Shown: positions 49,509 through 59,253 of the stretch, one piece after another
Numbering within the stretch: the first letter of the stretch is position 1
Layout of the letters: each line of letters opens with the position of its first letter
Origin: Singulisphaera sp. GP187
GTDB taxonomy: Bacteria > Planctomycetota > Phycisphaerae > Phycisphaerales > SM1A02
Reading direction: 5' to 3'
Assembly: GCA_945868805.1 (NCBI GenBank)
Contig: CAMBMO010000015.1
Span: 1 to 59,443 of the forward strand
Length of the DNA stretch: 59,443 bases
Position numbers and translations under genes: made by a program
The notes under the pieces: model-generated
Databases searched by the model: none
What the model saw: the letters and a program-made list of their open reading frames with translations, nothing else
Told to the model about the DNA's origin: nothing

Positions 49509-50624
49509 ATGCCTATGACATACCGACTGAAACTGACTTGGACAATTGCGATTGTCGCTTTGACATCTCCGGCGCTTTCCCAATCCCCTCCCCCCCTGCC
49601 TCCTAGCTCGGTCAAACCAAAGGTGGTTGCGGCTCCAAGGCCACCTCTCGCCCCCGCTCCAATTTCACCGAAAGCAAATGCACCGAAAGCGACTGCACCG
49701 AAACAGTCCGACGAATCGGCACCAGTGAGTGAGTTACTCACCGAAGAGCCAGACATGCTCTTCGCACTCATGCACACCGGCATCTCGATCGACTTTGACG
49801 AGACTCCAGCGAAGGATGCGATTGAATTCATCCAACGCATTGCCGGAGTCCAAATCTTGGCACGTTGGCGGACCGAAAAGAATCCCTCGGGGATGGACCC
49901 CGAAGAATTGATCACGCTCAAGCTGCCAAGTATCTGCGTACTCGACGCACTCGAAGCTGTGCTCCACGAACTCGCTACGGAATCCGATTGCACATGGCAA
50001 CTTCGACGGGGCTTCACCGAAATCGGAACCAAAGAGAATCTCTCGCGACGAGGGACACGAGAAACCAAGCTCTATCCGATCAAGGACTTGCTCTACGAAG
50101 TGCCCTACTTTGACAATGCGCCAGATTTCAATATCGATGCTGCGCTCAACCAAGGAAGTGGTGGCGGATCTGGCGGTGGAGGTGGCGGTAGCGGCGGTGG
50201 CGGATTTGGTGGCAGTGGTGGAGGTGGCAGTGGCGGAGGTGGTGGCGGAGGTGGCGGTGGCGGGCTCTTCGGAAACGGGGGCGATAGTCCCGAGCGCGCG
50301 ACGGATGCCGCCAAGGCTGCGCGACTGATCGGTCTGATCAAATCTATCGTCGAGCCTGAAGCCTGGGACAACGACTGGGCGACGATCGACTACACGCACG
50401 AATGCCTGATCGTTCGCGCTCCTGACTATGTTCACCGTGCACTTGGTGGGTACGCATTCTTGCCGCCATCGCGACTTGAACGACAACGAGGGGGCGGACG
50501 GTATGTCTCGATGACCGTCCCAATGACATTTTCGCAGCTGCAAGGATTCGCGCCGGCGACAATTGGCGGATCCGCCGGCGGCAATGGCATCGGTGGCGGC
50601 GGTGGTGGCAGTCCACGACCGTAA
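49509..50624 (+). CDS. Secreted STN-like protein with glycine-rich region
   Basis: A 371-residue exported protein. After a signal peptide (LTWTIAIVALTSPALSQ) and a Pro/Ala/Lys linker, residues 90-170 look like the short secretin/TonB N-terminal fold: ISIDFDETPAKDAIEFIQRI, ITLKLPSICVLDALEAVLHE, and LYPIKDLL as in type-II-secretin-like planctomycete proteins. A run of about 45 residues is almost all Gly with Ser (50155-50275), and a second Gly-rich tail ends the protein. Between them lies LIGLIKSIVEPEAWDNDWAT. It may belong to a secretion or cell-surface assembly. There is no secretin barrel. Confidence 0.65.
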   Translation: MPMTYRLKLTWTIAIVALTSPALSQSPPPLPPSSVKPKVVAAPRPPLAPAPISPKANAPKATAPKQSDESAPVSELLTEEPDMLFALMHTGISIDFDETPAKDAIEFIQRIAGVQILARWRTEKNPSGMDPEELITLKLPSICVLDALEAVLHELATESDCTWQLRRGFTEIGTKENLSRRGTRETKLYPIKDLLYEVPYFDNAPDFNIDAALNQGSGGGSGGGGGGSGGGGFGGSGGGGSGGGGGGGGGGGLFGNGGDSPERATDAAKAARLIGLIKSIVEPEAWDNDWATIDYTHECLIVRAPDYVHRALGGYAFLPPSRLERQRGGGRYVSMTVPMTFSQLQGFAPATIGGSAGGNGIGGGGGGSPRP

Positions 50625-50714
50625 CTGCCGATTCGCGGGGACCGGGCTTGCGAGAATTCGCCACAACCCGCGCAAGTGACAAATCGACTCTGAACGATCG
50701 GGTACACCTAGATC

Positions 50715-52064
50715 GTGCACACGAGATCTCGAAAATTGCGAGCGGACCTTGCTGCCTCGACCGGCGATGGGGTGACTTACTCGTTCATGGTGGGAGTTGG
50801 GGAGACCTACTTCATTCCATTCGTGCTCGCCATCGGCGTCGGCGAAGTGAGTGCTGGCCTTTACTTCACAATCCCATACCTCCTCGGCGCGATCCTTCAG
50901 TTGCTCGCGCCCTGGGGAGTATCTGCGCTGAAGAGTCCGCGAAAATGGGTGATCTGCTGCGCGATCGTGCAATGCGCGAGCTTCGTTCCGCTCGTCGATG
51001 GTGCAATTCGAGGCTCAATCCCCCCATGGGCTCTGTTCGCAGCATTTTCGTTTTACTGGGGCGCCGCCATCGGTGCTGGACCAGCGTGGAGTGCGTGGGT
51101 CGCGGCACTTATCCCGTCGCACATTCGACCGAAATACTTCGGCCGACGCAGTCGCATTTGCCAGTTGGCGACACTCGCCGGACTCGCGGTCGCTGGAAGC
51201 ATCCTCTTCGCTGGCGAAGGACTGGATCGTGCTGCAGACGAATCTGGAACGATCGCGTGGCAACTCGTCGCCTTCGGGATGATCTTTGCACTCGGCAGTC
51301 TGAGCCGTGGCACATCGATCCCGTACTTGATTCGCCAGAGCGAACCACCCGCCGGTACGTGGGTGCACTCGCCGGTACCGCTTCGAACGCTCCTCATCCG
51401 ACCGCTCATGGGAAACGAAAGACCGCTGGTTCTCTTCATCCTCCTCTTCCAATTGGCGGTTCAGATCTCCAGTCCATTTGTTGCCTCGTTCCTCATTGGT
51501 GAAGTCGGACTCAGCAACGGGATGTACTTCGCCGCGGCCGCAACGCTTTTTGCCACGAAAAGCGTTGCCGTATCCGCCTTTGGTTCGATCACATCTCGCC
51601 GCGGCGCGCGCTTCGTGCTGGTCTTGTGCGCGGCGATGCTGGTGGGGCACGCGGCACTCTTTGCGCTCCCACCACACCTTGTGACGATTTTCGCGTTGAT
51701 GGCGATGTCCGGTGTGTGTTGGGCTGGTTTCGAACTTGCGACTTTCCTGTTGCTGCTCGATGTTTCCAAACCCGAAGAGCGAACGAGCACACTTTCTGCA
51801 CTCAACTTCTTGAATGCAGTCGCGCTCGTCGTCGGATCGATTCTCGGAGGAACGCTCCTTCACTCGATGGGAGATGACCGAACGGCCTATTGCGTGCTCT
51901 TTCTGGTTTCGGCGGTCGCTCGACTTGCGACCCTCGCACTGCTGAGATCGGTCCCCGACACGCGCCCGCAAACGAGCGACGATCGATCGGGTCGAAGTAA
52001 TCTGCGCGAGATCAGCATGGAAGAAGACGGATCATTCAATCGGCCTCCGGAATCGATCTTGTGA
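50715..52064 (+). CDS. MFS transporter
   Basis: A 449-residue polytopic transporter with twelve predicted helices: SFMVGVGETYFIPFVLAIGV, WGAAIGAGPAWSAWVAALIP, LVLFILLFQLAVQISSPFVA and GFELATFLLLLDVSKPEERT are representative. It has the two-bundle plan of the major facilitator superfamily and resembles the product at 43885. Start GTG 50715. Its stop overlaps the next gene's GTG start (GTGA), so the two are probably co-translated; perhaps a lipid or glycan flippase-like role beside the glycosyltransferase, but that is inference. Confidence 0.8.
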   Translation: MHTRSRKLRADLAASTGDGVTYSFMVGVGETYFIPFVLAIGVGEVSAGLYFTIPYLLGAILQLLAPWGVSALKSPRKWVICCAIVQCASFVPLVDGAIRGSIPPWALFAAFSFYWGAAIGAGPAWSAWVAALIPSHIRPKYFGRRSRICQLATLAGLAVAGSILFAGEGLDRAADESGTIAWQLVAFGMIFALGSLSRGTSIPYLIRQSEPPAGTWVHSPVPLRTLLIRPLMGNERPLVLFILLFQLAVQISSPFVASFLIGEVGLSNGMYFAAAATLFATKSVAVSAFGSITSRRGARFVLVLCAAMLVGHAALFALPPHLVTIFALMAMSGVCWAGFELATFLLLLDVSKPEERTSTLSALNFLNAVALVVGSILGGTLLHSMGDDRTAYCVLFLVSAVARLATLALLRSVPDTRPQTSDDRSGRSNLREISMEEDGSFNRPPESIL

Positions 52065-53815
52065 ATCGCGTTGCGAAGGGCATCTGCCTCGTGCTGGCAG
52101 CCGCATTCGCCTCGCTCGCGCTCATCGAGAGTACGACCCTCGCGCGCTTCTTCACCCACGAGGCTCTTGCCCTTCGTGCCGGCGTGGAGATCCGACCAGT
52201 CACCCTTCAAGGGGCAGAATGGTTTCGCGCGATGTGCGTCGCTTCGGCGCTGGCGTGGATCGCGATTCCCTGGATTCTCGCGCGCGTCGACGCGTCCCGA
52301 TCCACTGTGAATGATCCAATCGAGCGACTCGATGCCATCACTGGATCGAACTGGGCGACCCGCCTGCGAATCGCGCTCCTCTTCGTTCTCGTCATCGGCT
52401 TGGCCCTGCGGCTCTGGCGCATCGCTGAGAGTTTCTGGTTTGACGAGATCACGACGCTGATCGATTACGCCCAGTACGGTCCAGGACCAATCCTCGGGAC
52501 GTACTTCGTCCAGTCCAATCATGTGCTCCACACATTGCTCTCATGGTGCGCCGTGACAATGGCGGGCGTCGTGAGCGAGCCCATCTTGCGCGCTCCGGCA
52601 TTCTTCGCGGGGTTGGCGGCAATTGGCGCAATCGTTGTGCTCGTGCGCGAAGCTGCCCTTTGGCAGCAAGTCGCGACTCGCTCGCGGATGGCAGTCGGAT
52701 GCGCGCTCGCGGCACTCTCGCCGATCATGGTGCTCGAGTCGGTCGAAGCGCGTGGCTACTCGATGATGATCCTCTTTTCGGCGCTCGCATCGGCCGTGCT
52801 TTTGCGGGGATTGGGCAGAGGCGGCGTGATTTCCTGGATTGGTTACGCCATGATTTGCGTTCTCGGAGTCTGGTCACACCTCGTCTTCGTGGTCGTTCCG
52901 TTCAGTCATGCTTTGGTTGCGATATGGGTTTCGCTACGACCTCGCTTGGGAACGCGCGATCGAAAGGGAGGACTCTCACTACTCCTGGCGATTGTTTTAG
53001 CCGCGATCACATCCGTCACGGTCCTCGCGCCGCTCTTTCCAGACCTCATGCAAATCCGTGGCGAGTTTCAAGCGCTCGACGGAAATGAACCATCAATTTT
53101 TTCGCGGGAAGGGTTCCATGTTCTCCTCGGTCTCGGAGGCGCGTGGAGTATCAAAGCATCGATTCTCCCACTTTTCATTGTTCTCGTCGGGATCGCCGGT
53201 CTCCGCATGGATTCCGCGCGACGAATTCCTCTCGCTGTGACTTTGCTCGGGCTTCCGATCTTGGCGCTCGGCACCGAGCTCGGTGGCGGTTGGATGTACG
53301 CAAGGTTCGCTCTCTTCGCATTACCGGGAATTTTTCTGGCGATGACCATGGGCGCATTCGACTCTGCACATTTCTTGATACACAGGAGAGTCGATGCGAC
53401 TCGCGTGCGAGCTTTGACCGCTGGTGGAGCAATTCTGATCGCAGCATTCTGGGTTGACTCGCTCTACAAGCTCCCGGCGAAGCAACCCATCCGCGATGCA
53501 GTGCTCTTCGCACAGGAGCAAAGCAATCCGGGCGACAAGATTGCAAGCGTTGGACTTGCGGACAATGTCGTTGCTTACTACGCCCTCGCTGCGGGTCTCG
53601 AGATCCACGATGCAGGGATGGGCGGGTCGGAGATTGACTCAATTCCTCCAGACATTCATTGGTTGATCGCGATTTATCCTCGATCCGTCACTGACGCCGG
53701 CAATCGATCTCTTGACGAATCGTGGACGTTGGTCCGGACATTTCCGGGATGGGTCGACTGGGACAACGGCGATGTACTTGTGTATCGGCGCGATCGCCAA
53801 GCGCAACCCCAGTAG
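52061..53815 (+). CDS. Membrane glycosyltransferase, PMT/ArnT-like
   Basis: A 584-residue membrane protein with about eleven to thirteen helices and a short C-terminal exported domain. LRLWRIAESFWFDEITT contains the acidic pair in the first outer loop that is typical of GT-C enzymes using polyprenyl-phosphate sugars (PMT, ArnT, and related families). LSPIMVLESVEARGYSMMIL and GGGWMYARFALFALPGIFLA are membrane segments. The sugar and acceptor are unknown. It starts at GTG 52061 overlapping the MFS gene. Confidence 0.75.
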   Translation: MNRVAKGICLVLAAAFASLALIESTTLARFFTHEALALRAGVEIRPVTLQGAEWFRAMCVASALAWIAIPWILARVDASRSTVNDPIERLDAITGSNWATRLRIALLFVLVIGLALRLWRIAESFWFDEITTLIDYAQYGPGPILGTYFVQSNHVLHTLLSWCAVTMAGVVSEPILRAPAFFAGLAAIGAIVVLVREAALWQQVATRSRMAVGCALAALSPIMVLESVEARGYSMMILFSALASAVLLRGLGRGGVISWIGYAMICVLGVWSHLVFVVVPFSHALVAIWVSLRPRLGTRDRKGGLSLLLAIVLAAITSVTVLAPLFPDLMQIRGEFQALDGNEPSIFSREGFHVLLGLGGAWSIKASILPLFIVLVGIAGLRMDSARRIPLAVTLLGLPILALGTELGGGWMYARFALFALPGIFLAMTMGAFDSAHFLIHRRVDATRVRALTAGGAILIAAFWVDSLYKLPAKQPIRDAVLFAQEQSNPGDKIASVGLADNVVAYYALAAGLEIHDAGMGGSEIDSIPPDIHWLIAIYPRSVTDAGNRSLDESWTLVRTFPGWVDWDNGDVLVYRRDRQAQPQ

Positions 53816-53957
53816 GACGCTGAAGAACTTCGAATTCTCGAGAGAATCAAAAAAACTCTGACGTGGATTATTGATAGGACTTCGCCTTTGCGGCGTCGCG
53901 GGCGGGCGCGCGACAAATCCACTGCGACATCCACGGCGACCTTTCATGTCGCGCTTG

Positions 53958-55232
53958 TCACACCTGCCAGAGCGGTGGATTGCAGTCATAGCCCGACATC
54001 GGATCGTCAAGCCACGGCTCGAAGATAAATTGGTCGCGCTCGAAGTGCCCGCCACCGATTCTCCCATCGGCGGCCCCGTACTTGGTGCGATGCGAACTCC
54101 ATGATTGCACATTCCACTCACCCACTCGTCTACGCCCCCAGAGCCAACATGCCGCAAGATGCGCTCGATGATTGGAGTCGGGTGGGGATGCGCAAGTCAC
54201 GGCAGTCGCCACCCCAGCCATTCTCAGAAATTCGCGAACGCCCAAAACTGAGAGACCACGGGCAGCATGTCCTCGCCATGCTGCGACCGAAGCCCTTGTT
54301 GCATCGCTTGCTGGTCGACGAGCAAACGCACGGAATCTTCGACGGGCACGACGCACGCTCGCTTGCCGAAGAACCGTCACCGATGGATGGACATTGAAAC
54401 CAACCCACGGGACGCCTTGGGATGTTTGAAAAATATGCGTCTTGCGCGCAGACTCGACCAGTCTGAGTGACGAAAGAGCATTCTTCATCTCGCTGTGTAC
54501 AGCGTGCAGCTCTTCGACCGAGCGAGAAAACACCACAATGTCATCGCAATATCTCGCATACGGTCGAATGCGAAGTCGATCCTTCACCGAGTGATCCACG
54601 GGGTCGAGCACGATGTTGGAAAGAAACTGCGATGTCAGGTTTCCCATCGGAAGACCTCGACCTCGCACCGCAGGATCGAAGAGATCGTCACCTTCGAACC
54701 ACCTCAGTGGCGCCTCGCGACTGGACCAACTTGCCAGTATCAGAGAAAGCATCGACAAAGTTCGCCGGCAGGAGACACGACGCTTTACGAGCTGAAGTGC
54801 AATTTTATGGTCGACCGACGGGAAATACTTTTCGACATCAAGTTTCAACACCCACGGATATTGATGCGCCCACCGCTCGACGCGAGAGAGTGCTGCGTGC
54901 GTTCCCTTGCCGATCCGGCATGAATATGAGTCCGCGATGAACCCGCGTTCAAATGCAGGCTCGATCACTTGGACGAGCGCTTGATGGACGACGCGGTCAC
55001 AAAATGGAGCGGCACAAATCGTCCGAATCTTTGGCTCTCGAATTTCGAAGACGCGGTACTCGCTCGGTCGCCAACTGCCGGCTCGCAATTCATCCGACAG
55101 TCGCTGACAATGCGATTCCGCACGCATCAGAAATTCCGTGGTTGACGCACGGTATCGCTTGCCTCTGGCCGCGATTCGTGATGCAATATAAAGATTCTCA
55201 AACGAAGAAATCCGCTCGAACAAAGCGCTCAA
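53958..55232 (-). CDS. DGR reverse transcriptase
   Basis: Reverse transcriptase that copies the template RNA with adenine mutagenesis, 424 residues. FENLYIASRIAARGKR and IREPKIRTICAAPFCDRVVH are the N-terminal DGR-type segments, LKLDVEKYFPSVDH holds catalytic D132, GLPMGNLTSQFLSN is motif 4 with the SQ that distinguishes DGR enzymes from group II intron and retron enzymes (SP-type), and YCDD (228-231) holds the other two Asp. WVGFNVHP is the following thumb-side motif. About 80 residues after 345 (Trp- and Gly-rich) exceed most relatives. The TTG start at 55232 overlaps the avd stop (TTGA). Confidence 0.95.
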   Translation of the reverse strand: MSALFERISSFENLYIASRIAARGKRYRASTTEFLMRAESHCQRLSDELRAGSWRPSEYRVFEIREPKIRTICAAPFCDRVVHQALVQVIEPAFERGFIADSYSCRIGKGTHAALSRVERWAHQYPWVLKLDVEKYFPSVDHKIALQLVKRRVSCRRTLSMLSLILASWSSREAPLRWFEGDDLFDPAVRGRGLPMGNLTSQFLSNIVLDPVDHSVKDRLRIRPYARYCDDIVVFSRSVEELHAVHSEMKNALSSLRLVESARKTHIFQTSQGVPWVGFNVHPSVTVLRQASVRRARRRFRAFARRPASDATRASVAAWRGHAARGLSVLGVREFLRMAGVATAVTCASPPDSNHRAHLAACWLWGRRRVGEWNVQSWSSHRTKYGAADGRIGGGHFERDQFIFEPWLDDPMSGYDCNPPLWQV

Positions 55233-55756
55233 AGCAAATTGCGACGCCAGCCGCCGACTTGCTTTCCGACCTCGTCCAAGAGACGGGTCGCGTGTTCGAC
55301 CTGACCGATCGAAACAAGTTTCAGCGAGAATGCGATGCGAAAATTGTGGCGCAGCACTTCGAGTGTGATGTTGGCATCATCAAGGAACGAAACTTTGTAC
55401 ACCCGATCGGCGTATGCCGCACGAACGAGTTGTTCAAGGACTGCGTAGACCTGCGTCTCGATCCGAGTGCCGAGCGAATAACGATGATGCTTTGGAAAAT
55501 GCGCGACGACCGGCAATATCCATGCGATCAAAGCGTGAGTTCGTTCGACCACTTCGATACGACCTTTGGCGACCAGCGTTTCTGATACAGGAACAACGCC
55601 CCCCGCCGCCGCCCGCGATCGATTTGATCCATCGGGAGACGACGGGGCGCAAGACTCGTTCGGCTCGACGATGACGGAGGAAACTCCGCTCTCGCCGCGC
55701 TCAGGACGCGATCCGGGACTACCGACCTTGGCACGCTCGTGAGCGGCGGAGTTCAT
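55229..55756 (-). CDS. avd: DGR accessory variability determinant (Avd)
   Basis: A 175-residue small basic helical protein of the Avd type, which forms a five-subunit barrel that binds the reverse transcriptase and template RNA. From residue 60: VERTHALIAWILPVVAHFPK, HRYSLGTRIETQVYAVLEQL and VLRHNFRIAFSLKLVSIGQV give the four-helix bundle; the FPKHHRYSLGTRI segment is characteristic. The first 55 residues are Ser/Pro/Arg-rich and not part of the family. ATG 55756 is the only sensible start and lies 27 bp after the template repeat. Reverse transcriptase overlaps at the stop. Confidence 0.92.
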   Translation of the reverse strand: MNSAAHERAKVGSPGSRPERGESGVSSVIVEPNESCAPSSPDGSNRSRAAAGGVVPVSETLVAKGRIEVVERTHALIAWILPVVAHFPKHHRYSLGTRIETQVYAVLEQLVRAAYADRVYKVSFLDDANITLEVLRHNFRIAFSLKLVSIGQVEHATRLLDEVGKQVGGWRRNLL

Positions 55757-55782
55757 CCGCGGCTCACAATTCTGGCTAAGGT

Positions 55783-55905
55783 AGTGCTCGCGAAACGGCA
55801 ACCGATATTGTTGTTCTGGTTGCCTGGGGCGTTGTTGTTGCGGTTCGAGGCACGGCAGTTGTTGGCGTTGTTGTTCCACCCCCCGCCGCGCAGCACGCGC
55901 GCCCC
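55783..55905 (-). repeat. DGR template repeat (TR)
   Basis: Reading the minus strand, the repeat would encode GARVLRGGGWNNNANNCRAS then NRNNNAPGNQNNNIGCRFA: 13 Asn codons, nearly all AAC. It aligns without gaps to the 3' end of the target gene (56118-56240), offset 335 bp. Of 26 mismatches in 123 bp, 23 are at template adenines. The other three are G/C at the codon for Val633, T/C in the AAT codon, and one G/C in the shared end. AAC codons are what DGR templates use because A-mutagenesis of AAC reaches many residues and never a stop codon. It is transcribed as non-coding RNA, so the open frame through it (56013-55753) is not a gene. Confidence 0.95.
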
Positions 55906-56057
55906 CTCGCTTACGATCGCTGCCCTTTCAATGACCGCCGGCCTCGCGCTTGTGCGCTCGGCCCACAGTATTTGAAGTTCAGAATTTCTGAGTCTTTGAA
56001 TGTTTGTTTTCAATTCGGAAGTCCATCTCGGTGTTGGACAGAAAACAGAATACGGAA

Positions 56058-56108
56058 AAAGTTAAAAGGGAAAAAGGATAAAGGGTAAAAGGGATAAAGG
56101 GAAAAGGG
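56058..56108. repeat. AG-rich short repeats after the DGR target gene
   Basis: Units such as ttaaaaggg, ataaaggg and taaaaggg repeat with a 7-9 base rhythm just after the target gene stop. A version of the core occurs again at 58241-58265 on the other side of the gene in the same orientation. The interval 55906-56057 has nothing else recognisable apart from an aaacagaatac stretch. Confidence 0.75.
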
Positions 56109-58127
56109 TTAATCGGCAGTCCTCGCGAAACGGCAACCGAGGATGCCGACCTGGCAGCCCGGGGCGTCGTAGAGGCGGCGCGAGGCACGGCAGCTGAAGG
56201 CGCCGAAGCTCCACCCCCCGCCGCGCAGGACGCGCGCCCCGCTATTACTCCGCGCTGGACCCGTTGGATCAACCACGCCGTCTGCGCAGGATTTGTAATA
56301 GTCGCCCTCATACCAATCTTGGCACCACTCATTGACATTTCCGATCATGTCGTAGAAGCCAAGTGCGTTGGGTGCCTTCTGACCGACCGAATGTGTCGTC
56401 AATTTAGCATTGGTTTCGTTCCATGAGATCTGATCAAGTTCGCCGTAAGTCGCTTGGTCGACGCCCGCTCGGCAGGCATACTCCCACTGCGCTTCAGTTG
56501 GAAGAATCATTCCCGTCTTGGCGCAGAACTTCTGACAGTCAGTCCAGGAAATCATTTCGACTGGATTCACTGCCTTTGCCGCCTTTGCCGTTGACTCTGC
56601 CAAATTTTTCGCTTCATCAGCAGTGGAGATTTTGATTTGCAATTCTTGATGAAGTATAGAATGAACCTCAGCGATCAACTTCGCATTTGATTGCTGGAAC
56701 AAACTTGGATTCACTCCCATCACCTTCATCCACTGTTCTTGCGTCACTTCGGTGCGACAAAGATAGAACGCCTTGGTGATCGTGACCTCATGCTGAGGAA
56801 CCTCGTCTTGAAGGTTGTCAACGAAATGGAATGTATCGCCCGAGCTCATACCCATCATGAACTTACCCGGAGGAACCAAGAGCATTTCCATGCCAGTCGC
56901 CTTGTCCCGCACATGCCATGGCAGGCCAGTCGCCGCGATGCGTCTGCGTAAATCGGTATCAACGACAATTTTGGGGTCAGGTTCACGCGCCAACACCTCA
57001 CCCCATAGAACCTCGATCGGCTCGACCAACTTCAACTGGAAGGTGTCAGGCAATTGCTCATCAAGGGCTGTTGTCGTTGCTTCAAGATTGTTTTCCAACA
57101 TCCACTTGCCTTTACCCATATAACCGGCAACACTTTTTATGCCGCCGGCATTCGTAAACTCAAAGAAATTGCGATCGCTTGACTCTTCTCGACGAATCAA
57201 CGTATTGATCGCCTTCATCGCATCTCTCAGAGTCACGCTCTTACCGCCAAATTTGCGAGCGATTCTCCATGCGATTGACCCTCCACCAGTTCGCACAACG
57301 AATAGTGCATCCTTGGAATTCAGCACAGCAAGCAGCGGAATGAGGTCTGGTCCGCCACCCTTCTTATAAATCTTCATCGCTGTTTTCTCCAGGTTGATCG
57401 CTGGACTTTCACCAAGCTCAAGAAGATTCGCGAGCCGTAAATTGCTAGTATCGGTGAGTTGGGCGACGAATTTTATTGGGACCCCTTCTGGCCGCTCCGC
57501 TGGAATTTCAACCTCTTGTCGACGTTCGTATGTTTCCGCTTGGGCATCGGCGCAATGGTCGCCATTCACCATTAGCGGAATCGTGTCAAGTTTCACGACG
57601 AGCGGCGTGGATCCAAAGTTATATAGGTTGACAGAAAACGTAATCTTGCTCTGCCCAACAACAGTCTTTCTGCATTGTTCAAAATAAATCTCTTTAATCT
57701 TCTTTTCCTCACTTGCAGATCGGCTCTGACGGTTGACCGATGCACTTGCTGTCGCAGTCGCACTGAATTTAAACATTTTAAGAGGGTTTGGTCCTACCTG
57801 GATACCCGCTTCGACTCGGCTGTCTGCACCTACCTCCCAACTGAACGTATCAGACTTTGTTTTTGAATTTGTGTTTGCTTCACGGCTTCCAGATTTGGAC
57901 TCTGACTGAGTCGATATGTCATAGGCCAAACTCAATATCCCAACATCCCACTTAAGACTTGGATAATTTGCAATGATTGGATCGAGATCATTCGCATCTG
58001 GCACTCCGTCCCAATCAGAATCAGCCAACTTGGCGGCTTGCGGTTGGTCCTCTCCTCCAACCCCAACCATTCCAACGACAAGCGTGGCAAGCACCATGAA
58101 CATTGGTTTTTTCCCGAAATTAGACAT
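56109..58127 (-). CDS. DGR target protein: secreted FGE-sulfatase/C-type-lectin fold protein
   Basis: Diversified ligand-binding protein of 672 residues. A hydrophobic N-terminus (FMVLATLVVGMVGVGG) leads to a thrombospondin-3-like calcium motif D36SDWDGVPDANDLD, a beta-rich middle part (60-390) of unknown fold, and a formylglycine-generating-enzyme (SUMF1) type C-lectin domain from 395: EMLLVPPGKFMMGMSSGD, FYLCRTEVTQEQWMKVMGVN, PVEMISWTDCQKFCAKTG, LPTEAQWEYACRAG and GNVNEWCQDWYEGDYYKS. The last 43 residues, GARVLRGGGW onward, are the variable region; 14 codons (640-663) differ from the template. The body is AT-richer than the window while its 3' end is very GC-rich. Signal and calcium motif suggest display outside the cell. 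Confidence 0.93.
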   Translation of the reverse strand: MSNFGKKPMFMVLATLVVGMVGVGGEDQPQAAKLADSDWDGVPDANDLDPIIANYPSLKWDVGILSLAYDISTQSESKSGSREANTNSKTKSDTFSWEVGADSRVEAGIQVGPNPLKMFKFSATATASASVNRQSRSASEEKKIKEIYFEQCRKTVVGQSKITFSVNLYNFGSTPLVVKLDTIPLMVNGDHCADAQAETYERRQEVEIPAERPEGVPIKFVAQLTDTSNLRLANLLELGESPAINLEKTAMKIYKKGGGPDLIPLLAVLNSKDALFVVRTGGGSIAWRIARKFGGKSVTLRDAMKAINTLIRREESSDRNFFEFTNAGGIKSVAGYMGKGKWMLENNLEATTTALDEQLPDTFQLKLVEPIEVLWGEVLAREPDPKIVVDTDLRRRIAATGLPWHVRDKATGMEMLLVPPGKFMMGMSSGDTFHFVDNLQDEVPQHEVTITKAFYLCRTEVTQEQWMKVMGVNPSLFQQSNAKLIAEVHSILHQELQIKISTADEAKNLAESTAKAAKAVNPVEMISWTDCQKFCAKTGMILPTEAQWEYACRAGVDQATYGELDQISWNETNAKLTTHSVGQKAPNALGFYDMIGNVNEWCQDWYEGDYYKSCADGVVDPTGPARSNSGARVLRGGGWSFGAFSCRASRRLYDAPGCQVGILGCRFARTAD
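56118..56240 (-). repeat. DGR variable repeat (VR)
   Basis: Copy of the template repeat at the end of the target gene. In place of the 13 template Asn codons it has Ser, Phe, Gly, Phe, Ser, Arg, Leu, Tyr, Asp, Cys, Val, Gly, Ile, and the template Ile codon is Leu. The conserved framework GARVLRGGGW, CRAS, AP, G-Q and GCRFA is unchanged. The identical GC-rich tail (56122-56140) next to the stop is where an initiation-of-mutagenic-homing element would be; it differs from the template by one base (56121). Confidence 0.95.
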
Positions 58128-58134
58128 GATGTCG

Positions 58135-58140
58135 AGTATA
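58135..58140 (-). promoter_or_regulatory. Candidate -10 of the DGR target gene
   Basis: TATACT on the minus strand lies eight bases before the target gene ATG, which would give a leaderless or nearly leaderless transcript. The -35 region (TGTTCA at 17 bases) is poor. Tentative. Confidence 0.25.
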
Positions 58141-58240
58141 GGTTTGATCTACGGCATTGAACAGGCGCGCTCTTTATCAAGCCTCATAGCGAAGGTAGTC
58201 GATCAATTTGCCACCCCGCGGCGAAGGCCGCGGAATAAAT

Positions 58241-58265
58241 CAAAAGTTAAAAGGGATAAAGGGAA
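58241..58265. repeat. Second copy of the AG-rich repeat
   Basis: aaaagttaaaagggataaag and the bases after it match, nearly base for base, part of 56058-56108. It lies in the 310-bp gap between the target gene and the PH-domain gene; the rest of this gap (58128-58437) shows no gene, tRNA or clear hairpin. Confidence 0.7.
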
Positions 58266-58437
58266 ATTGAATAGGTTTAGAGGACAGTCCGAGGTTGGAA
58301 TCTGATCACGTGGTGTGTCGCCGCAATTTCCCAAGAAAAGTGCCATTTCTGCACTGTCGAGGATGGCACGCCCCCTGAACAACGGTGGTTGCCATCGGTT
58401 CACAATATCATCGTTCTCTGGACGTCGATTAGCAGCA

Positions 58438-59253
58438 TCAAATGTTGCTTATGATTCTTGCCTTTATGGTTTCGAATTCAGAGTCATTGATTAGATTTCT
58501 GTCCAGCATATCTTTTGCTTTTTGGAGTTGCTCTGTCGGATCTCCGACATTACTGGTTTGATGTTGCGGGAGATTTGTGCCCGCCACGGATGCGCCGATT
58601 TGGATTCCCCCAGACCTGGAGCGAAGTTCCTCAAGTTCACGGAGTCGGCGTTTCTCGCGCCAAGCCTGCTCTTGTGCCTGGCAAATCCTGTAGATTGCTT
58701 GAGTTTCGTCCTTTCGAAGCCCACGAAAAATAATGGTTTGAATTCGCCCATTACTCGCAAAGTCTGAGCTCTCGAGAGCTTGAACGGTCAGTTCCGCCCC
58801 GAAAGCACCTGCTCGGACACGAGCATCCTTCACATCCTGCCAACGCACATCATGTGGAGTAAATCCTCCGAAGAGACCGCGTGAGACACCAATCAAACGA
58901 CCGGAAGTGGCGAAAAGCAAGCAGCGTCGATGACTGAGGGCAAACAGGCGTCGCTGGACTGCATACGCAAGCAGGGTTTCATTCGGAACGAGTAAGGAGA
59001 ATAGGTAAGCAAGTGCTTTACTTACACGAGGTTCTTCCGCCACAGGAATGGCTTTCAGTTCTTGTTGTTTTTGCGGCTGTGCAGTGGCTGGCGGCGACAC
59101 ATTTAACCGAGGGGTGGCAGGCGAGTTGGATTGGGGGGTTGGGACTTTACTTGAGCCTTTGCAGTTGGGGCAATTGATTGTCTTGCCGCAAGACTCAGGA
59201 CGCACCCTAAGTGACTTCTGGCAATATGGGCAGTTGAATCTAAAATCAGACAT
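58438..59253 (-). CDS. Zinc-ribbon, PH-like and SHOCT domain protein
   Basis: A 271-residue cytosolic protein, start ATG 59253 (MSDFRFNCPYC). Residues 8-36 form a zinc ribbon (FNCPYCQKSLRVRPESCGKT, then INCPNCKG). A Pro/Gln linker leads to a bacterial PH-like domain (about 95-195: LVPNETLLAYAVQRRLFALS, LLFATSGRLIGVSRGLFGGF) and the end (EQLQKAKDMLDRNLINDSEF, then ETIKARI) is a SHOCT module. These modules occur in proteins near membranes or in stress and phage-related regions. It lies upstream of the DGR on the same strand and is AT-rich like the target gene. Link to the DGR is unproven. Confidence 0.75.
   Translation of the reverse strand: MSDFRFNCPYCQKSLRVRPESCGKTINCPNCKGSSKVPTPQSNSPATPRLNVSPPATAQPQKQQELKAIPVAEEPRVSKALAYLFSLLVPNETLLAYAVQRRLFALSHRRCLLFATSGRLIGVSRGLFGGFTPHDVRWQDVKDARVRAGAFGAELTVQALESSDFASNGRIQTIIFRGLRKDETQAIYRICQAQEQAWREKRRLRELEELRSRSGGIQIGASVAGTNLPQHQTSNVGDPTEQLQKAKDMLDRNLINDSEFETIKARIISNI

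What the first reader, a model, noticed from the sequence alone, without database searches (positions are those of the whole stretch)
53958..58127. Complete, apparently functional diversity-generating retroelement
Target gene with variable repeat, template repeat, avd and reverse transcriptase occur in the canonical order on one strand, all frames are intact, and the RT has the DGR motif 4 (GNLTSQ) and YCDD active site. DGRs let a cell rewrite chosen residues of a binding protein at very high diversity. This one would vary a cell-surface protein in what looks like a free-living planctomycete.
Basis: partly seen in the sequence, partly recalled or inferred. Interest (0 to 1): 0.95.

Follow-up and report, generated by a model that had tools for sequence, protein, structure and literature searches.

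The report
Complete protein-diversifying retroelement in a planctomycete
This stretch holds a complete copy of a known kind of genetic machine that rewrites chosen letters of a binding protein, here in a planctomycete bacterium; its sequence looks intact, and related genomes show the same machine beside other target genes and at another place in the chromosome.

Summary
On the minus strand lie a target gene (56109-58127) ending in a variable repeat (VR 56115-56240), a template repeat (TR 55780-55905), avd (about 55229-55756) and a reverse transcriptase ORF (53958-55232). TR and VR differ at 27 of 126 sites, 24 of them TR adenines. Avd passes its curated model. The RT groups with DGR-type RTs, apart from group II RTs; its best solved relative is 8ub7. 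The target ends in an FGE/C-type-lectin domain, closest to the DGR protein TvpA. It is a DGR: a new member of a known kind.

Same-genus genomes add more. VRs of three genomes differ pairwise at 17-19 of 32 adenine sites but 1-2 of 94 others. G001 has a VR on another contig with 25 of 26 changes at TR adenines. From within TR to about 185 nt past it no site differs from G001, against 4.7% elsewhere. The RT ORF's last 80 or so residues are unrelated flank; G001 and G016 have the cassette at another place beside another target. No strong hairpin follows the VR; a pyrimidine tract does. Current activity was not testable.

The parts
53958..55232 (-). reverse transcriptase ORF (424 aa, TTG start, start overlapping the avd stop); true RT part about 54208-55232
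   Evidence: GNLTSQ and YCDD motifs
53958..54207 (-). C-terminal tail of the RT ORF, unrelated to the RTs of G001 and G016; read-through into flanking DNA
   Evidence: homology to G001 ends at 54208 and to G016 at 54214; boundary sequences; no Pfam match; no relative at E under 0.08 among the 295 loci held other than the window's own copies
55229..55756 (-). avd (accessory variability determinant); domain about 55238-55549; start codon uncertain (in-frame ATG at 55756)
   Evidence: bAvd 79.1 bits, DivGenRetAVD 101.8 bits; start codons
55595..55779 (-). candidate template-RNA spacer 3' of TR, overlapping the apparent N-terminus of avd
   Evidence: no difference to G001 in this stretch; 77 differences in the 1933 nt compared
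55780..55905 (-). template repeat (TR), 32 adenines, 12 AAC codons and one AAT
   Evidence: one difference to G001's TR, at 55894
55906..56114 (-). VR-TR gap; no perfect stem over 5 bp with a loop of 3-8 nt
   Evidence: widely spaced 6-7-nt AT-rich arms exist; the 153 nt next to VR and their equivalent in G016:C14 differ at 1 site
56053..56113 (-). pyrimidine-rich tract directly 3' of VR (coding strand)
   Evidence: overlaps the only cluster in the window of 60-nt stretches at least 88% one class, 56047-56108; 6 of 7 pattern hits in 19 genomes lie just 3' of VRs
56115..56240 (-). variable repeat (VR), target residues 630-671
56122..56140 (-). IMH-like 19 nt identical in the window's TR and VR at the VR 3' end; the next base differs (TR C, VR G)
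56109..58127 (-). DGR target gene, 672 aa
56121..56891 (-). FGE-sulfatase / C-type-lectin-fold domain (residues 413-669) holding most of the VR
   Evidence: Pfam E 3.4e-46; PDB 2y3c E 4.3e-27; VIA-align Z 25.8 to 2y3c
57012..58127 (-). N-terminal part of the target (372 aa), orphan
   Evidence: no Pfam match (residues 1-369); residues 29-366 have no match in the 180 other family genomes searched except one at E 0.006; lower G+C
58246..58267 (-). second copy of the pyrimidine tract, upstream of the target gene

Best explanation
A chromosomal diversity-generating retroelement. RNA carrying TR and a 3' spacer is bound by RT and Avd; the RT copies it and misreads adenines; the mutated cDNA replaces the VR at the 3' end of the target gene, so a C-type-lectin-fold binding surface gets new residues. 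By codon count 19 VR codons hold a TR adenine, 18 of which can change the residue (13 are AAC or AAT, which cannot become stops): about 2e18 protein variants if all take part. TR stays fixed. Shown by sequence: the parts, the adenine bias, the RT's kin, the lectin fold, adenine-confined divergence of VRs between genomes. Inferred: RNA priming and retrohoming (from the BPP-1 model), activity today, surface display and ligand binding. In relatives the same machinery appears to have an unlinked target, and the TR-avd-RT cassette is present or absent beside VR-bearing targets.
For: 24 of 27 TR/VR mismatches at TR adenines. VRs of window, G016:C14 and G001:C53 differ pairwise at 17, 19 and 17 of 32 adenine sites against 1, 1 and 2 of 94 others. 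G001:C53 VR against G001's TR on contig C90: 26 mismatches, 25 at A. RT: PHROG 1423 E 6e-101; 8ub7 E 6e-70 against 2.2e-33 for the best group II RT; 40 rows split from 3 group II rows at 100/100. RT differences to G001 fall 10/8/33 on codon positions 1/2/3 and avd ones (55232-55600) 3/2/14, as under purifying selection. Avd curated model passed. Target: 2y3c (TvpA) is the best PDB match by sequence and, tied with PvdO, by fold.
Against: No second VR is assembled in the own genome. No reads, so no direct sign of current activity. No GC-rich hairpin 3' of VR, though such hairpins are described as nearly always present (passage). The RT carries a tail of about 80 residues from flanking DNA, of unknown effect. 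Three TR/VR mismatches are not at adenines. The VRs compared come from genomes of different species, so their differences may be old. The tree has no retron or DRT rows.
Confidence: 0.94

Rival explanations
1. A complete-looking but inactive DGR: it diversified its target in the past, and the cassette with its RT tail at this place no longer works.
For: RT frame runs about 80 residues into unrelated DNA; no hairpin after VR; only one VR assembled in this genome; G012 and G013 keep adenine-biased VRs with no RT found at E 1e-30, so machinery and targets do come apart in the genus.
Against: All frames are open; RT and avd differences to G001 favour third codon positions, and most of TR plus the spacer shows none; 24 of 32 TR adenines are altered in VR.
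Confidence: 0.12
2. The cassette (VR 3' flank, TR, avd, RT) behaves as a portable unit that docks 3' of VR-bearing target genes, using VR/TR homology on one side. (This is compatible with the best explanation; it concerns how the DGR came to lie here.)
For: G001 and G016 share the cassette with the window at 96% and 89% DNA identity up to 54208 and 54214 but not the DNA beyond; G014:C24 and G012:C78 have the flank that lies beyond the RT in G001 and a VR-bearing target, without TR-avd-RT between; VR-TR gap 1 of 153 different against 21 of 126 upstream of VR, window versus G016.
Against: Direction and mechanism are unknown; simple gain and loss, or replacement of the target's 5' part by recombination, gives the same pattern; in G001 and G016 most of the target and the RT are on separate contigs, so their linkage is inferred; three cassettes only; the G014:C24 target is truncated.
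Confidence: 0.3
3. The RT is not of the DGR kind (group II, retron or defence RT) and the TR/VR pair is an ordinary duplication.
For: RT profiles of other kinds match the RT, as any RT would.
Against: The eight NCBIfam RT matches fall far below their cut-offs; adenine bias p 6.6e-12; tree.
Confidence: 0.01

Closest known systems
Treponema denticola DGR and its variable protein TvpA (PDB 2y3c)
   Same: FGE-type C-type-lectin target with VR at the C-terminus; remote targets, and target genes in isolates without core DGR (passages of PMC4891356); best sequence match and top fold match here
   Different: the window target has a 372-residue N-terminal part without known relatives; another phylum; VR flanks were not compared
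Bordetella phage BPP-1 DGR (Mtd, Avd, bRT; that 8ub7 is this RT is recalled)
   Same: RT, Avd, TR, VR, IMH-like element, TR followed by a spacer; adenine mutagenesis
   Different: order avd-TR-RT there, TR-avd-RT here; phage tropism protein as target there; hairpin after VR there, none found here
Planctomycetota DGRs with TR 3' of the RT (G001:C23, G014:C16, G007:C16, G086/L126, G096/L143)
   Same: similar TR scaffold (79-83% identical DNA); FGE-type matches in the loci of G014, G007, G086 and G096 (L125, L135, L126, L143); nearest RT group, with L122, in the tree (85/89, not starred)
   Different: RT 42-46% identical; TR lies downstream of the RT
Thiohalocapsa PB-PSB1 DGRs (PMC10907252, passages only)
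   Same: trans targets and FGE-type VR domains are reported there
   Different: targets there include putative conflict systems, and transposons are held to have shaped them; transposons were not looked for here

Membership tests
diversity-generating retroelement | RT of the DGR lineage | tested here: met
   the tree holds group II references only, no retron or DRT rows
diversity-generating retroelement | RT motif 4 with a GxxxSQ core (pattern recalled; usually I, L or V before the G) | tested here: met
   window MGNLTSQ, that is M before the G; GNLTSQ, GNQTSQ or GALTSQ in the 12 relatives aligned, with I or V before it
diversity-generating retroelement | TR/VR pair whose mismatches fall on TR adenines | tested here: met
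   24 of 27
diversity-generating retroelement | VR inside a target ORF, in a ligand-binding (mostly C-type lectin) fold | tested here: met
diversity-generating retroelement | accessory protein Avd (common, not universal) | tested here: met
   101.8 bits, cut-off 80
diversity-generating retroelement | IMH at the VR 3' end, slightly different in TR | tested here: met
   in the window 19 nt identical, then C in TR and G in VR; at that base 8 of 9 VRs looked at have G and one (G012:C66) has A (8 VRs, partial G001:C90 VR). A likeness of sequence, not a test of function
diversity-generating retroelement | hairpin/cruciform 3' of VR (usual helper, not strictly required: passages) | tested here: inconclusive
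   window: no perfect stem over 5 bp with loop 3-8 in 209 nt; of 9 VR flanks one (G001:C53) has a 12-bp stem, three have 6 bp, five have 4-5 bp; imperfect stems were not scored
diversity-generating retroelement | structured template-RNA spacer 3' of TR | tested here: inconclusive
   no difference to G001; fold z -2.1, 4 of 100 shuffles as good; covariation not tested
diversity-generating retroelement | ongoing diversification in a population | not testable with these tools
   no reads; between-genome VR comparison only

The most novel reading that the evidence does not exclude
In this genus the VR is marked for retrohoming not by a hairpin but by a purine/pyrimidine tract (a candidate triplex-forming, non-B DNA element) directly 3' of VR, and the tract-TR-avd-RT block is a portable cassette that docks behind new VR-bearing lectin genes, so that one DGR can change its target gene.
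Probability: 0.17. Interest if true: 0.65.

Novelty: new member of a known kind. Interest (0 to 1): 0.4.

Why it matters
As a member of a known kind it adds an intact DGR in a planctomycete genus, with close relatives that let one see adenine-confined divergence, a target on another contig, and presence and absence of the cassette at one locus. If the tract replaces the hairpin, or if the cassette really docks at VRs, it would give a test of two open points: what marks a target for retrohoming, and how DGRs acquire new targets.

Tried and rejected
Rejected: group II, retron or defence RT; simple duplication; a conserved C-terminal RT domain (no Pfam match; no relative among the loci held). My first look at that tail and the avd translation were in wrong frames; replace them. 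I first took the G000 gap between valS and its neighbour for about 430 nt; it is about 165 nt.

Led nowhere: the N-terminal part of the target. Viral contigs, plasmids and Pfam gave nothing; phmmer against PDB gave two weak matches, THR1 and THR2 (E 0.005 and 0.03), taken as chance; AlphaFold models were poor there (whole target mean pLDDT 55, with most of residues 1-388 under 60; residues 29-372 alone 37), so nothing is said about its fold. Rfam: no match in the window at gathering scores. Of the 160 loci kept (capped lists of the best 80 each; 51 of 80 genome, 73 of 80 viral) hold a repeat pair with at least 75% of mismatches at A on the RT strand, 3 more at T, and 33 none; why those 33 lack one was not examined. 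For the tree 33 of the 160 loci were used, chosen by hand (26 with such a pair, 7 without), plus 6 own or same-genus RTs, one phage DGR RT and 3 group II RTs.
Full report
Observation. The window's minus strand holds, in order of transcription, a 672-residue gene (56109-58127), TR (55780-55905), avd and an RT ORF ending at 53958. The 126-nt repeat pair has start-to-start spacing 335. Of 27 mismatches, 24 lie at TR adenines (12 A-to-G, 9 A-to-T, 3 A-to-C); 24 of 32 adenines are altered, p 6.6e-12.

Proteins. RT: Pfam RVT_1 E 7.5e-23, PHROG 1423 E 6e-101; the eight NCBIfam RT models that match do so far below their cut-offs. Among solved structures the best match of a 13-sequence profile is 8ub7 (E 6e-70; BPP-1 RT by recall), then a group II RT (2.2e-33). 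In a 43-row tree the 3 group II rows split from the 40 others at 100/100; the window, G001:C90 and G016:C25 form one small clade (98/100) on a long branch, near planctomycete DGR RTs and one Armatimonadetes RT (85/89, not starred). Avd: 101.8 bits, cut-off 80. Target: FGE-sulfatase domain E 3.4e-46; best PDB match TvpA 2y3c by sequence (E 4.3e-27) and first by fold (Z 25.8, 221 residues, rmsd 2.6; PvdO at 25.4 is tied with it; the DGR proteins TaqVP and Mtd also appear, Z 13.1 and 12.8).

Own genome. G000 has 2.50 Mb in 47 contigs and the window is the whole of contig C15. TR matches itself and the VR; three further hits have E over 1. The target has paralogues: that on C33 (67% identical over residues 373-627) breaks off with its contig at the point equivalent to window 56242, two bases before the VR would begin; that on C21 breaks off with its contig inside the corresponding stretch, where by eye its DNA is not close to TR. 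Only one RT of this kind was found.

Same genus. 5 of 19 genomes, G000 included, have an RT match at E 1e-30; in the family 15 of 181. A TR/VR pattern with up to 3 mismatches finds 19 sites, TRs and VRs, in 9 of 19 genomes and none with the reversed control. Eight of these 19 sites lie within 500 nt of a contig end, against 1.1 expected from the contig lengths: assemblies tend to break at these repeats, as repeats or population variety would cause.

Adenine-confined divergence. VRs of the window, G016:C14 and G001:C53 differ pairwise at 17, 19 and 17 of 32 TR-adenine sites and at 1, 1 and 2 of 94 others (Fisher p 1.6e-10 or lower). G001:C53 lies on another contig than G001's DGR and matches that TR with 25 of 26 mismatches at A: an unlinked target, unless the two contigs adjoin. 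G016:C14 carries the cassette's own VR 3' flank (1 of 153 different from the window), so it is read as G016's linked target. Against the window's TR, G012 has VRs with 19 of 24 and 19 of 35 mismatches at A, G013 17 of 24 and 17 of 25, G014:C24 15 of 23; G012 and G013 have no RT match at the threshold. The other sites were not counted this way.

Template RNA. Window and G001 differ at 77 of 1933 nt; none of these lies in 55595-55893, where about 14 would be expected at the rate elsewhere (my reckoning, and the stretch was chosen after the fact). This is TR without its first 12 nt, where one site (55894) differs, and the 185 nt after TR. In BPP-1 a spacer 3' of TR recruits RT-Avd and primes cDNA (passage of PMC12875486). 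Here the spacer overlaps the apparent N-terminus of avd, so avd's start is uncertain. The RNA fold is only mildly better than shuffles (z -2.1). In the other planctomycete lineage the sequences after TR share short motifs by eye, not analysed further.

Cassette and places. Homology between window and G001 ends at 54208, with G016 at 54214, about at the native end of the RT; beyond it the three RT frames run into different flanks. In G001 and G016 the RT end lies beside a tRNA-Ser; beyond it in G001 is a DUF1570 gene, with like DNA in G016. valS (valine-tRNA ligase) lies on the target side in G016:C14; in G001 it is on the separate contig C143, followed by the start of an FGE-type target. G014:C24 and G012:C78 have target VR, the same flank and valS but no TR-avd-RT between; the G014 target is truncated. 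In G000 valS and the DUF1570-type gene are about 165 nt apart, without target or cassette, and no tRNA was found in 8 kb there. So the window's cassette sits elsewhere, behind a target whose N-terminal part has no match in the 180 other family genomes searched except one at E 0.006. G+C of 56500-58499 is 45-50% against 56-61% at 50000-54499, which would fit foreign origin of that part.

VR 3' flank. Guo et al. [quoted passage not shown] In the window's 209-nt gap the best perfect stem with a loop of 3-8 nt is 5 bp; of 9 VR flanks only G001:C53 has a strong one (12 bp, 0 of 300 shuffles). A pyrimidine tract follows 5 of these 9 VRs; with up to 2 mismatches its pattern occurs 7 times in 19 genomes, 6 times just 3' of a VR (5 VRs, one with two hits) and once upstream of the window's target, with no control hit. 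The other 4 VRs lack it or, G012:C66, have a partial form. That it acts in retrohoming is a guess.

Literature. Seen: passages of PMC8144416, PMC12875486, PMC3240598, PMC10907252, PMC3521204, PMC4891356; otherwise search listings only. Remote targets, strains with targets but no core, variable order of parts and horizontal movement of DGRs are all described in those passages. A search for DGR with Phycisphaer found no paper; of the 10 papers listed (of 555) in one for any two of DGR, triplex, H-DNA or tract terms, none holds the DGR term. The library is open-access only, so this says little.

Verdict. A complete DGR, new member of a known kind, most likely functional, with useful comparative context.

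Noticed in passing
L036:8079-8169, L037:1219-1309, L104:5071-5161: tRNA-Ser with anticodon ACT beside the DGR or target locus in G001, G016 and G014; an A at the first anticodon position is unusual (recalled). Not found in the 8 kb of G000 read as L103; the rest of G000 was scanned only in L051 and the window.
   Followed up: partly
window 53867-53927: About 60-nt dispersed repeat, listed copies 81-92% identical in G000, G014 and G016, some near FGE-type genes.
   Followed up: partly
G014:C110, L111: Very long open frames (862 and 1526 codons) with several FGE-type matches in tandem.
   Followed up: no
G000:C17:32911-35973: Three tandem paralogues of the target's FGE-type part; TR has no DNA match there. 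Similar triplets in G001:C138, G016:C41 and G014:C88.
   Followed up: no
G001:C23 and G001:C90: One genome carries two DGR lineages, with TR downstream and upstream of the RT, and similar TRs.
   Followed up: partly
G016:C80:97-687, L025: RT fragment with a TGA stop inside, near a contig end; perhaps a decayed second DGR.
   Followed up: no
window 49509-50624: ORF of 371 aa with a long glycine/serine-rich stretch, followed by an MFS transporter gene.
   Followed up: no
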